Source: Persicaria tinctoria
Taxonomy: Eukaryota > Streptophyta > Magnoliopsida > Caryophyllales > Polygonaceae
Direction of reading: 5' to 3'
Assembly: GCA_037127255.1 (NCBI GenBank)
Contig: JBANSL010000002.1
Span: forward strand, 12,754,001 to 12,818,000
DNA: 64,000 nt
Both the position numbers and the translations under genes were made by a program. Below the pieces are notes generated by a model, which was given only the letters and a program-made list of their open reading frames with translations, had not been told where the DNA came from and did no database searches. Position 1 is the stretch's first letter; each line of letters starts with the position of its first letter. Shown piece after piece: positions 18,872 to 57,152 of this stretch.

Positions 18872-18904
18872 CCATATTAGCAAAATGTCCACCCCTAAAA
18901 TAAA

Positions 18905-19145
18905 GTTGTTGAAACTCATGTGCTAACTTCTGTTTCAGCAGTTTTTTTTCCGCTTTTTTTTTTCGTTTTTTTCGCATTTCCAGAGTTGTTGAAACCCCTT
19001 TGCCACACTCTGTTTCAACAGTTTTTTTTTTCGCTTTTTTTTTTCGCGTTTCAAGAGTTGCTGAAACCCTTGTGCCACCCTCTGTTTCAACAGTTTTTTT
19101 TGTTTTTTTTTTTTCCGCGTTGCTCAAACCGAAGTTGCTAAAACC
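18905..19145. repeat. Tandem T-rich units with GTTTCAGCAG/GTTGCTGAAAC motifs (copy A)
   Basis: About three units of 70-85 bp each run from TCTGTTTCAGCAG or TCTGTTTCAACAG through a T-rich CGCTTTTTT stretch to TTTCCAGAGTTG.TGAAACC and a TGTGCCAC word. Copy C has a parallel array at 50418-50700. Confidence 0.8.
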
Positions 19146-20056
19146 CCGGTTTCAGCACTGTTGTAGATGCTGAAATCCCGGTTTCAGCAACCTTGTTGAT
19201 GCTAAAACTCCGGTTTCAACAACGTTGTTGATTTTGAGGTGATTATTGTTGACACTGCTGAAAATGTTATACATACAAGCTACTGAAAATAGAAAACCTG
19301 AAATGTTGTCATATATGCTTGTAAGATATAGTAGTAGCTCATACAATTTTATAAGAATCAATTTCAGCAAGGCAATTTTTTTTTGTTGAAACTGCCATTA
19401 TCCAAACTCTCATTAGCTAATTAAAAACATTAGCTCTACCGGCCTTTTACATTAGCTAATTAAGAACATTGGCTCTACCTGCTGAAATATTGAAACCGGG
19501 GTTCTCCGTGCTCTCTTTGTTCTTCCTCGCTCTACCAACGTTGCTGAAATGCTGAAACCGGGATTCTTCGTGCTCTCTTTGTCCTTCCTAACTTCCTTGC
19601 TCGCTTGCATCCTCACCGAATACACCAGTACACTAGTCAATATACACCAAGCATTTATATTCACAATAATTTGCTGAAATTGCACAAAAAAAAAGTCTAG
19701 AAAAAGGCTCAATTTAATAACAAAGACTCTATATACACCAGACATTAGTATTCACAATAATTTATATATATCTATAAATTAATCATCAATGAAAGAAAAA
19801 GAAATTGAAATGGTAATACCATTTCAGCAATTGCTGAAATGCTGAAATTCATCAAAGTACTAAAATGCTGAAATGCCCTTAGCCGTTCTTCAAAAGTTAA
19901 AGCAATGTAAACAAAATTGGTGAAATTACCAATATCCAAATATCTCAACAAAGCAAACACATTCAAGAACAACATAAGGATCACAAATTCAACAACTGTA
20001 CACAAATTAAAGACCTGAAAGCTAAAATCCTCAAAAGCTATTTCATACTCTCTTAC

Positions 20057-20182
20057 CTCCATCTCTATGAGATACTCGTATATGCCACTAGCGTACGACG
20101 CGCACATCTGCGGGTCATCATCATTCTTCATAGTATCAATTCCTCTCCTACTCACCGCCGACAAGTCCACCGCATCCTCCAC
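20057..20182 (-). pseudogene. Captured cyclin-A3-like exon fragment
   Basis: The minus strand encodes 42 residues including GIDTMKNDDDPQMCASYASG and IYEYLIEME. These resemble the start of the cyclin box region of plant A3-type cyclins (typical pattern DDPQMC.AY..DIYEYL). The fragment ends at a GAG|GTAAGA donor with intron sequence beyond, so genomic DNA was captured. The core cyclin box is absent, so no cyclin function is expected. It lies inside copy A. Confidence 0.6.
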
Positions 20183-20949
20183 CGGCGTTTTACTCCCGCC
20201 CTCGCATCCATCGTCTCCAGATCCAACGTCGTACTGTCAGATATGTTATTGTCGGTGCCGGCCTCGCACCCCTCGCCCGCCCGTCGGTTTCAACGTTGTA
20301 CTGTCAGATATGTGGTGGCTGCAACACCACAACCTCCCCCTCCGCCGAATCTCCGTCGCCTCCGCCTATTGCATGTCGCCATCAAATAGAAAGCTTCTAC
20401 GACGGCGAAGCTCTTCGACAACTAGTCTCAATTACAGCCTTCAATTCGGCCACTGTCCACCGCCAGATCGGGATTGAAAGCTTCTATCGGAGAAGAAGAG
20501 ACCGGAGACCGCTGCGAAGCCAAAGGCAACTGTTGCACAGTCGAAAGCAAAATCGACGGAGAGAGATAAAACGGAGGAAGCAGATCTGAATCCAATTCCC
20601 GATCTGCTCGGCCATGGCAGTTGCACCCTCCGTCCAGATCCCGTGTCCTCCTCCGTGCTCCACTCCGACAATAACCGTCCAGATCCGGTCGCCTCCGGGC
20701 TCTCTGCCGCCAGATTCGAGGATCTCGTGGAGAGAGCGTCGTGACAGAGCAAAGATGAAGATGATGGGAACAATGTTTTAGTTTTGGTGCTGAAACGCCA
20801 TTGACTGAGGGGTAATTTTGTCCATAAAAGTTTAGGTGGACAAAACCCTAATTTTACAAGGGTGGGAGACACTCTCCAATTAGAGGCCCAAAAATGGGTC
20901 CGTTGGGCAAATTTTCTCTAATATATATATAAACTTTTCTTTTATAATT

Positions 20950-21185
20950 TAATGCTTACTCCATCTCACAAAATTTATTGTTTTAACTTCGACGTGTTTT
21001 TTAAGGATGATATAAAATATCAATTATTTTATTAATTTTTTAAAATAATCTCATACTTAATATAATTATCTATAAAATTATTTTTAAAATCATTAAAAAT
21101 TTGATATCTTGATATATTTTTTAGCTTCTTAAATCACAAGATGAAAATAAAATCTGAACTAAATATTGAATATGGAGGGAATTGA
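20950..21185. mobile_element. Stowaway-like MITE
   Basis: The left end CTCCATCTCACAAAATTTATTG-like word (CTCCATCTCACAAAA) with TTTTAACTTCGACGTG is mirrored by GAATATGGAGGGA at the right. The interior is AT-rich and non-coding. Termini are diverged and the TA target is approximate. Confidence 0.45.
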
Positions 21186-54817: not shown

Positions 54818-55950
54818 ACGGAAATTTCGCGAGGTACCCCTGAGGTATTGCAATTTTCGCGAGGTATACAACTCTTTTGCATATTTCGCATGGTGCCCCT
54901 GTGGTTTTCTTTTTTTCCGCCTCGTGCCCTTGTGGGTTAGATTTAACAGTTTTTTTTATTTCCGTTAGTTTGCAATAAAAAAAGAAAAAGAAAAGAAAGA
55001 GTGGACGGAGAAGAGTGAGTGAAGCAAGCGACTCAGATCCAAATTCCACCGAACGAAGACACCACCACGTCCGAGAACACCGCCACCTCCGAGAACACCG
55101 CCACCTCTCCTCCTTCGCCGACGAGGACACCGCCACCTCCGAGAACCTCCCCGACGGAGCCAGTATTGGAGACGAATTTCATAGCTTTCCTAATTTCATT
55201 CCCCAAACCCTAATTTCGTCGCGCCTGTCTCTCCTCCTTTGATTAGGACTTCGATCTGATGCCTACTGCTACCTCCTGCATCTTCTCCTCCATGTCTGTT
55301 CCCAATTCAACCCAATTCAACCCTCACTGGCGGCTCCCACTCCCTGGCTCCTGCTCTCCTCCATGTCTGTTAGTTTTCAATCAAAAAAAGAAAGAAAGAA
55401 AGATGGGGCGGTGCCCACTTTCAAGAAGTATCCAAGAGAGGTGCAAAAGCAAGAAGCCTCTGGCGTGTGAAGTATCAAAGAGAAGATGCAGGAGCAATGT
55501 TAAATTTAACATTGCTGCGAGTGCGAAGCCTCTGGCGTGCTCTGTCTGTAGAAATCAGGAAGTATTCGAGGTGCAGGAGCAAGAAGATGGGGACGGTGCC
55601 CACTTTCAGGGAGGTGCAGGAGTCGGCGGCGGTGAGCGTGGCGGCGTTGGTGAGGACGACGTCTCTCCCGGTGGTGACGGAGAAGGAGTGGAGGAGGAGG
55701 AAACCCTAATCCCTCCCGGCGTTGGTGAGGACGGCGCTTTCTTCTTTCTTTCTCTTCTGTCCGTGCTTTCTTTCTTTTTCTTTTTTTTTAATTGAAAACT
55801 AACGGAAATCACCCAAATCCGTTAAATCTAACCCACAAGGGCACGAGGCGAAAAAAGATAAAACCATAGGGGCACCATGCGAAATATGCAAAAAAGTTGT
55901 ATACCTCGCGAAAATTGCAATACATCAGGGGTACCTCACGAAATTTCCGT
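54818..55950. mobile_element. MULE with ~150-bp TIRs nested in copy D
   Basis: The left end ACGGAAATTTCGCGAGGTAC is matched by the complement at the right, and the similarity extends about 150 bp through words such as GGTATACAACTC and TTCGCATGGTGCCCC. Direct repeats AATTTTT (54811-54817 and 55951-55957) flank it. The interior is GC-rich with repeated CCGCCACCTCCGAGAAC units (55060-55160) and open frames on both strands, probably captured or low-complexity. No transposase is seen. Confidence 0.85.
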
Positions 55951-56003
55951 AATTTTTATTAGCAAAATTCGTTAGGCTGAAATCAATTTTGTAGAATTTG
56001 CAG

Positions 56004-56140
56004 ATTGCACTGTGATCACAGTGGCTCACAGGATACCAACTGTCATGGACTGCTTCATAGAGTACATAATGCTTGATGGTGTGAACGATGAAGAGAAGCA
56101 TGTTCACATGCTTGGCAATTTGCTACAAACAATTGACGTG
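56004..56140 (+). pseudogene. Chimeric captured exon: ABCC transporter H-loop fused to an RlmN-like radical-SAM segment
   Basis: Between a TTTGCAG acceptor and a GTG|GTGAGT donor lies one open exon. It first reads DCTVITVAHRIPTVMDC, the H-loop region of plant ABCC (MRP) transporters. It then continues without a frame break into FIEYIMLDGVNDEEKHVHML and GNLLQTIDV, which matches the RlmN/Cfr-type 23S rRNA methyltransferase family (EYIMLDGVND). The two proteins are unrelated, so the junction was made by transduplication. Only short segments of each are present and no enzyme activity is expected. Confidence 0.75.
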
Positions 56141-56425
56141 GTGAGTTTGTTTATTATATTAACAACACGTTGTTGAAACCGGAGTTTCAGTACCAACAAA
56201 GTTGATGAAACCGGGGTTTCAGCAGCAACAACAATGCTGAAATCAGGGTTTCAACAACGACGTTGTGGAAGGAAATTTGGAGTTAGACTCGTGAGAGGAA
56301 TATTTTTACTCTTTTGGTGAGGACTCATAGTTTGGTCCTTTTTTTTGCTGAAATTGTTGTTGCTGAACTTGCTTTAAAACTAGAATTTGCTGAACTTGTT
56401 GAACTTGCTTTAACTCTCTTTTAAA

Positions 56426-56493
56426 AGCCTCTTAGCTCAATGGTAGAGGGATGTGCTATGCGCAAATACGTGGGTTCGAATCCCGCATAAGCT
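56426..56493 (+). tRNA. tRNA-like pseudogene within copy D
   Basis: TTAGCTCAATGGTAGAGG (D-arm) and GTGGGTTCGAATCCCGC (T-arm) are clear. The acceptor stem (AGCCTCT versus ATAAGCT) pairs poorly and the anticodon arm is irregular. The D-arm part recurs in copy B at 47604, so it is an ancestral component of the element. Confidence 0.55.
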
Positions 56494-57152
56494 AAATTTT
56501 ATATCCCGTAACATTATTTCATCAACAATTTCAGCATCAACAACGTTGCTGACATCGGGGTTTCAGCATCAACAACATTGCTGAAACCGTGGGTTTAGCA
56601 TCAATAACGTTGCTGAAACCGTGGTTTCGGCATCAACAACAGTAATGCAAAAAGAAAAAGAAAACTGTTGAAACAAAGAGGGGGAACAGGTGTTTCAGCA
56701 ACTCAAGAAACGTGGAAAAAACAAGGTAACATGGAGAAAAAAAAACAAGGTAATTTCGGCAACGTGGAAAAAAAGAACTCAATTTCAGCAACTTCAATTT
56801 CAGCAGTTTCAGCAACACGGGAAAAAAAAAAAACTAAATTTCGCGGAATTTTTTTTTTGCTGAAAACAAAAATTTCAGCAACTTTATTTTAGGGGTGGAC
56901 ATTTTGCTAATATGAAGAGGGTGGGGGACAATTTCCTAATATAGACAAAAAATATGGGCTGTATAATAACTGCCCCTTAATTAATTATGATACATCAACT
57001 TGAACCTTCGATCAAGTATCTGACATGCTTGCTTATATATACGAATAATTGAATATATACATGATGTAGGAGTTTAAATCTAACCTATAAAATTGAAGAA
57101 TTATATATGCCTACAACCCTAATTTAATTTAAGATGGAATCTTGTTGGTAGT

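What the first reader, a model, noticed from the sequence alone, without database searches (positions are those of the whole stretch)
18872..56975. A four-copy, possibly undescribed non-TIR transposon family that repeatedly captures host genes
Copies at 18872-20917, 46107-47716, 50322-51753 and 53761-56975 share a head (GGGGTGATTA, then ATATTAGCAAAATGTCC), a tail (GAGACACTC...GTTGGGCAAATTTTCT) and GTTTCAGCAAC/GTTGCTGAAAC motif arrays. The ends are not inverted repeats of each other. Copies C and D have perfect 9-bp TSDs (ATATTAAAT, CTTAATTAA). At least three of the four carry a different host gene piece (cyclin A3, RING-H2 ATL, TMEM33-like plus ABCC/RlmN). Nine-base TSDs point to Mutator-like transposases; the lack of TIRs and the dense palindromic motif array are unusual. 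I cannot exclude that the family is already catalogued.
Basis: partly seen in the sequence, partly recalled or inferred. Interest (0 to 1): 0.85.

Follow-up and report, generated by a model that had tools for sequence, protein, structure and literature searches.

The report
Gene-carrying plant jumping genes, degenerate ends
Four related jumping-gene copies in a plant chromosome belong to a family of hundreds that leaves the 9-base footprint typical of the well-known Mutator group, carries bits of host genes, and has one end packed with a repeated short motif that may be a protein landing site.

Summary
The four copies are real and the family is genome-wide: 405 tail and 277 head matches in 1.68 Gb, 0 for the reversed-pattern controls. 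Of the 39 best relatives of copy C, 27 have perfect 9-bp TSDs. C and D have perfect TSDs; A lacks the first 61 bp of the head, and A and B have no TSD. Thirteen C-type copies differ by about 1%: recent amplification.

Two corrections. (1) The ends are not unrelated: in C and D the subterminal ~75-95 bp of head and tail are degenerate inverted repeats (57/75 in C; 0 of 2000 control segments as good). Only the outermost ~20 bp fail to match. (2) Of the captured pieces, B's RING-H2/ATL and D's ABCC fragment are confirmed; cyclin A3, TMEM33 and RlmN are not.

Best reading: a non-autonomous, Pack-MULE-like Mutator family with degenerate TIRs, a known kind. The most interesting feature is the 11-bp motif array (32 of 32 window hits lie inside the copies), resembling the motif arrays bound by VANDAL anti-silencing proteins or subterminal transposase sites. 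No autonomous partner was found; that search was partial.

The parts
18872..20918 (+). copy A: lacks the first 61 bp of the family head, no TSD; tail intact
46107..47716 (-). copy B: head GGGGTGATTACCCC at 47716, tail at 46107, no TSD; carries a RING-H2 piece
46599..47006 (-). RING-H2 / ATL-like open frame in B (zf-RING_2 E 3.5e-13; 59% identity to an ATL4-named protein over 70% of the query)
50322..51753 (+). copy C: complete, 9-bp TSD ATATTAAAT (50313-50321 and 51754-51762); 15 further near-full-length relatives at 89-99% identity among the 40 places scored
50341..50416 (+). C, head-side arm of the degenerate subterminal inverted repeat (57 of 75 aligned bases match the tail-side arm)
51654..51733 (+). 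C, tail-side arm of the degenerate subterminal inverted repeat
50494..50699 (+). C, 80-bp tandem units (2.5 copies) whose consensus holds GTTGCTGAAAC
50690..50841 (+). C, 32-bp tandem units (4.8 copies), consensus GTTGCTGAAATCGGGGTTTCAGCATCAACAAC, motif in both orientations
53761..56975 (-). copy D: complete, TSD CTTAATTAA (53752-53760 and 56976-56984); head diverged (GGGCAGTTATTATACAGCCC)
55976..56107 (+). ABCC (MRP-type) fragment in D; best PDB match ABCC13, E 1.5e-5; same fragment in L036 and L045
56169..56882 (-). D, head-side motif cluster (11 of D's 13 motifs)

Best explanation
The four copies are non-autonomous, Pack-MULE-like members of one Mutator-superfamily (MULE) DNA transposon family with degenerate terminal inverted repeats. 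Shown: defined ends, 9-bp AT-rich TSDs, recent amplification, one conserved head and tail around many different interiors, and host gene pieces in some interiors. Inferred: mobilisation in trans by a MURA-type transposase that reads the asymmetric outer ends together with the subterminal inverted repeat; and that the head-side array of the 11-bp motif GTTTCAGCAAC, in both orientations, is a protein-binding array, for transposase or for a VANC-like element-encoded anti-silencing factor. The first two rivals below concern only the role of the array and are compatible with this statement.
For: 27 of 39 places with perfect 9-bp TSDs (these 92% A+T), 0 of 1482 swapped-flank pairs perfect. Ends GGGGTGATTAC... 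/ ...TTGGGCAAATTTTCTC: 277 heads (exact to GGGGTGATTACNANNATGTCC) and 405 tails (<=1 mismatch), reversed-pattern controls 0. Median pairwise divergence 1.2%, maximum 2.1%, among 13 C-type copies, gaps ignored. 41 elements fall into 11 interior groups behind the shared ends. RING-H2, ABCC and F-box (L041) pieces. Subterminal inverted repeats in C, D and L034 score above all 2000 window segments tried. Motif: 32 of 32 window occurrences inside copies; 35 of 36 elements hold 2-13 of them, 273 of 343 in the first third. MULE transposases abound here (7504 first-look candidates; all 150 scored are over the cut-off).
Against: No transposase-bearing member with these ends was found. Subterminal inverted repeats are weaker in L044, L037 and B (3, 8 and 11 of 2000 segments as good) and not significant in L036, L041 and L045 (44, 204 and 442 of 2000); truncated A shows none (31 of 200 shuffles as good). 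5 of 39 places have no acceptable TSD, and A and B have none. No binding or methylation data exist for the motif. Donor genes were not located.
Confidence: 0.85

Rival explanations
1. Same MULE family, but the motif array is only a subterminal transposase-binding cluster, as in En/Spm (CACTA) or Ac, with no role in anti-silencing.
For: The array lies next to one terminus and has the motif in both orientations, which fits recalled knowledge of TNPA and Ac subterminal repeats better than the same-orientation VANDAL21 arrays (PMC5735166 part 2).
Against: The tail side lacks an array: 20 of 343 motifs lie in the last third, at most 2 per element, whereas transposase sites are expected at both ends; the motif sits in tandem units of 80 and 32 bp.
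Confidence: 0.4
2. Same MULE family, and the array is the target of a VANC-like, element-encoded anti-silencing protein that the non-autonomous copies borrow.
For: VANC targets are dense short motifs in tandem repeats in non-coding parts of VANDAL MULEs (PMC5735166, PMC10398659); the same layout is seen here. A MULE with an Ulp1 (Peptidase_C48) gene exists in this genome.
Against: That Ulp1-bearing MULE has no motif arrays in the 14 kb held; VANDAL21 motifs share one orientation, here both occur; the DUF1985 search did not complete.
Confidence: 0.25
3. Helitron or other rolling-circle element with a 3' hairpin.
For: L036, L041 and L045 end in a perfect palindrome with 12-bp arms, 3 bp from the terminus.
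Against: Perfect 9-bp TSDs, also in L036 and L041; no TC/CTRR ends; the C-type tail does not fold better than its shuffles (z -0.8).
Confidence: 0.02
4. CACTA or hAT family.
For: Subterminal repeats in both orientations.
Against: TSD is 9 bp, not 3 or 8; termini GGGG...CTC, not CACTA or CAGGG (family definitions recalled).
Confidence: 0.03

Closest known systems
Non-TIR MULEs: VANDAL and KAONASHI (Arabidopsis), Mutavine-6 (grapevine), MULE-Solanaceae_1 and _2
   Same: 9-bp TSDs with absent or degenerate TIRs; VANDALs also have short motifs in tandem arrays in non-coding DNA (PMC2528002 passages; PMC6446971 passages and Table 1; PMC5735166 parts 1-3 of 6)
   Different: no transposase or other element gene recognised in the copies here; motif GTTTCAGCAAC against YAGTATTAY and AGTTGTCC/AGTTGTAC, in both orientations; place in the MULE tree untested because no transposase was linked
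Pack-MULEs
   Same: non-autonomous, carry gene pieces between conserved ends, amplify
   Different: typical MULE TIRs are long and well matched (PMC3310237 passages); here about 76% over about 75 bp, offset 20 bp from the tips, plus a one-sided array
MULEs with tandem TIRs (PMC3310237, passages)
   Same: in 5 cases among the first 100 of 277 heads, two heads lie 453-512 bp apart on the same strand
   Different: known here from coordinates alone, and only for heads
En/Spm (CACTA) subterminal repeats (recalled)
   Same: short motif in both orientations near an end
   Different: TSD length, termini, one-sided array

Membership tests
Mutator/MULE superfamily | 8-11 bp (usually 9) TSD | tested here: met
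   27 of 39 perfect 9 bp, 4 more with one mismatch
Mutator/MULE superfamily | MURA-type transposase (MULE domain) in an autonomous member with the same ends | tested here: inconclusive
   150 scored of 7504 PF10551 candidates; 0 within 20 kb of the 100 listed heads (of 277) or the 100 listed tails (of 405), and only 60 of the 150 lie on contigs C1-C7, where the listed ends lie
Mutator/MULE superfamily | terminal inverted repeats (absent in some families) | tested here: inconclusive
   tips do not match; degenerate subterminal repeats clear in C, D, L034, weak in B, L037, L044, not significant in L036, L041, L045
Pack-MULE | non-autonomous, carries host gene pieces | tested here: met
   RING-H2 in B, ABCC in D, F-box in L041; donor genes not located
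VANDAL / VANC system | short motif in dense tandem arrays in non-coding DNA | tested here: met
   motif itself differs and occurs in both orientations
VANDAL / VANC system | VANC-type gene (DUF1985) in the family | not tested
   the PF09331 search did not complete
VANDAL / VANC system | loss of DNA methylation on motif binding | not testable with these tools
   needs bisulfite data
Helitron | no TSD, insertion between A and T, CTRR 3' end (recalled) | tested here: not met
   9-bp TSDs, end CTC or CTT
CACTA | 3-bp TSD and CACTA termini (recalled) | tested here: not met

The most novel reading that the evidence does not exclude
The family's one-sided GTTTCAGCAAC array is the address tag of a separate, sequence-specific anti-silencing system, analogous to VANC but with its own motif read in both orientations, and gene-carrying non-autonomous copies spread by keeping that tag: hitch-hiking on another element's demethylating protein as well as on its transposase.
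Probability: 0.2. Interest if true: 0.65.

Novelty: new member of a known kind. Interest (0 to 1): 0.38.

Why it matters
It gives a clean, recently active gene-carrying MULE family whose tips are asymmetric, useful for asking what a MULE transposase really needs at the ends. If the arrays prove to be anti-silencing targets, it would extend the VANC idea to an independent motif and to parasitic copies that encode nothing of the system.

Tried and rejected
Autonomous partner: the sequences then held were screened by eye on their 60 longest open frames and by tblastn with pieces of the transposase found beside copy L037. Transposase fragments turned up in L026, L028, L037 and L044, all outside the family copies. 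The one long pair of listed head and tail (C5, 4546 bp) was sampled over its central 2500 bases: no transposase similarity and no motif. Coordinates of 150 MULE hits against the listed heads and tails gave no neighbour within 20 kb. Helitron, CACTA and hAT were rejected on TSD length and termini. A tail hairpin as a general feature was rejected: perfect palindrome only in L036, L041 and L045 of the 14 tails compared; the C-type tail folds no better than shuffles (z -0.8). Cyclin A3 in A was not supported, although the frame 19772-20236 (-) holds a stretch that by recall resembles plant cyclin A. A donor-gene search with D, a search for the palindromic tail variant and a search with the L037 transposase never got an answer. 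A literature search for the motif as letters found 32 papers; I saw the 8 listed, by title and start of abstract, and none was on a plant transposon by those. The paper cited in PMC13317346 on eudicot anti-silencing (PMC9016345) is not held and was not read.
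Full report
What was checked. The window is G000:C2:12754001-12818000 of an unnamed 1.68-Gb genome; that it is a plant is my reading of the encoded proteins. A and C run forward, B and D reverse. C and D are flanked by perfect 9-bp repeats. A aligns to C only from C base 62 on, so its first 61 bp are missing, and it has no TSD; B has both ends but no TSD.

Genome-wide support. C has 15 other near-full-length relatives at 89-99% identity and 24 further places sharing parts of it, among the 40 scored of 2542 first-look candidates. 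I fetched all 39 (20, 19); they are C's best matches, not a random sample. 27 have perfect 9-bp TSDs, 4 have one mismatch (L012, L019, L034, L039), 3 have perfect 8-bp repeats only (L017, L020, L038), and 5 (L009, L027, L042, L043, L045) have none acceptable by that count, though L009 has an 11-base repeat with one mismatch. Swapping left and right flanks between elements gives 0 perfect 9-bp matches of 1482 and 18 with at most one mismatch. The perfect TSDs are 92% A+T. The tail pattern with up to one mismatch occurs 405 times and the degenerate head pattern 277 times; both patterns read backwards occur 0 times. Among 13 C-type copies the median pairwise divergence is 1.2% and the maximum 2.1%, gaps ignored, so the family moved recently.

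The ends. The outermost 20 bp of head and reverse-complemented tail agree at only 8 of 20 positions in C, 5 in D and 9 in B. From about base 14-20 inward they align: 57 of 75 bases in C and 64 of 94 in D. In C, D and L034 no window segment of 2000 scores as high; L044 (3), L037 (8) and B (11) are weaker; L036 (44), L041 (204) and L045 (442) show nothing, nor does truncated A. So 'the ends are not inverted repeats' is right for the tips and wrong for the subterminal part of C and D. L036, L041 and L045 instead end in a perfect palindrome with 12-bp arms, 3 bp from the tip.

The motif array. GTTTCAGCAAC or its complement, with up to one mismatch, occurs 32 times in the window, always inside a copy; Markov sequences of the elements' composition give a mean of 0.27. 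Of 36 extracted elements (4 from the window), 35 have 2-13 of them; the exception, L024, lacks that region. In all, 273 of 343 lie in the first third and 20 in the last, at most 2 per element. In C the array consists of 80-bp and 32-bp tandem units, and the 146-base stretch tested folds far better as single-stranded DNA than its 200 shuffles (z -5.2), as expected of a motif in both orientations.

Interiors. After trimming 600 bp of head and 140 bp of tail, 41 elements (42 less L024, which is too short; L009, L027, L042 and L045 kept although they have no acceptable TSD) fall into 11 groups when half of the shorter interior must match. B carries a RING-H2 frame (zf-RING_2 E 3.5e-13; 59% identity to a protein named ATL4). 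D carries an ABCC fragment (PDB ABCC13, E 1.5e-5); the same fragment can be read in L036 and L045, so it is probably an inherited piece rather than a separate capture. L041 carries an F-box (E 5.2e-6). The other nine frames of that call gave no convincing family (one weak match below its cut-off). In D a 19-residue Ninja/AFP signal match (E 3.1e-6) may be chance. The donor genes were not located because the search did not complete.

Autonomous partner. A MULE with a split transposase frame (MULE E 2.4e-14, SWIM, DBD_Tnp_Mut) and an Ulp1-type gene on the same strand (Peptidase_C48 E 4.9e-11) lies beside the family copy in L037. By eye it starts with GGGGAATTTGCAC; its other end and TSD were not found. 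It has no motif in the 14 kb held outside the neighbouring family copy, so it is not the partner on present evidence. 150 scored MULE-domain places of 7504 candidates showed none within 20 kb of the 100 listed heads or 100 listed tails, but only 60 of those 150 lie on contigs C1-C7, where the listed ends lie. The negative is therefore weak.

Mechanism. Cut-and-paste transposition by a MURA-type transposase in trans is inferred from the TSDs; different interiors between conserved ends are seen. The array's role is inferred. In Arabidopsis, VANC21 binds YAGTATTAY, and VANC6 targets hold AGTTGTCC or AGTTGTAC, dense and tandemly repeated in non-coding parts of VANDALs (PMC5735166, parts 1-3 of 6 read; PMC10398659, passages read). 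The layout here is alike, but the motif differs and lies in both orientations. A plain transposase-binding cluster is at least as likely.

Novelty. MULEs without recognised TIRs but with 9-nt TSDs are described in grapevine (Mutavine-6), Arabidopsis and Solanaceae, and transduplicated gene pieces in MULEs of several plants (PMC2528002, passages; PMC6446971, passages and Table 1; PMC13317346, passages). I therefore call this a new member of a known kind, with a possibly new target-motif system left open.

Noticed in passing
L037:2640-5678 (-) and L048:3667-4098 with L037:3-281 (-): A MULE with transposase frames (MULE, SWIM, DBD_Tnp_Mut) and an Ulp1 protease gene on the same strand, beside a family copy but with another start and no motif arrays. 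Reminiscent of KAONASHI MULEs, in which the Ulp1 piece runs opposite to the transposase (PMC2528002 passage).
   Followed up: partly
L036, L041, L045 tails: Subfamily tails AAAATTTGCGCCNNNGGCGCAAATTTTCTC: perfect palindrome with 12-bp arms 3 bp from the end, with a perfect 9-bp TSD in L036 and L041.
   Followed up: partly
G000 C3:42413349, C6:11063047, C6:12640929, C6:13649345, C6:38965345: A second head 453-512 bp away on the same strand in 5 cases among the first 100 of 277 heads, like tandem-TIR MULEs.
   Followed up: no
window 54816-55030 and 55735-55952: 219-bp inverted repeat (87%) inside copy D around an 0.7-kb stretch; could be another element nested in D.
   Followed up: no
window 27106-28233: Low-complexity stretch with long overlapping open frames on both strands (376, 312 and 309 aa), internally repeated in both orientations.
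   Followed up: no
window 55374-55709: Short match to the Ninja/AFP nuclear localisation profile (E 3.1e-6, 19 residues) in copy D; possibly another captured piece or chance.
   Followed up: no
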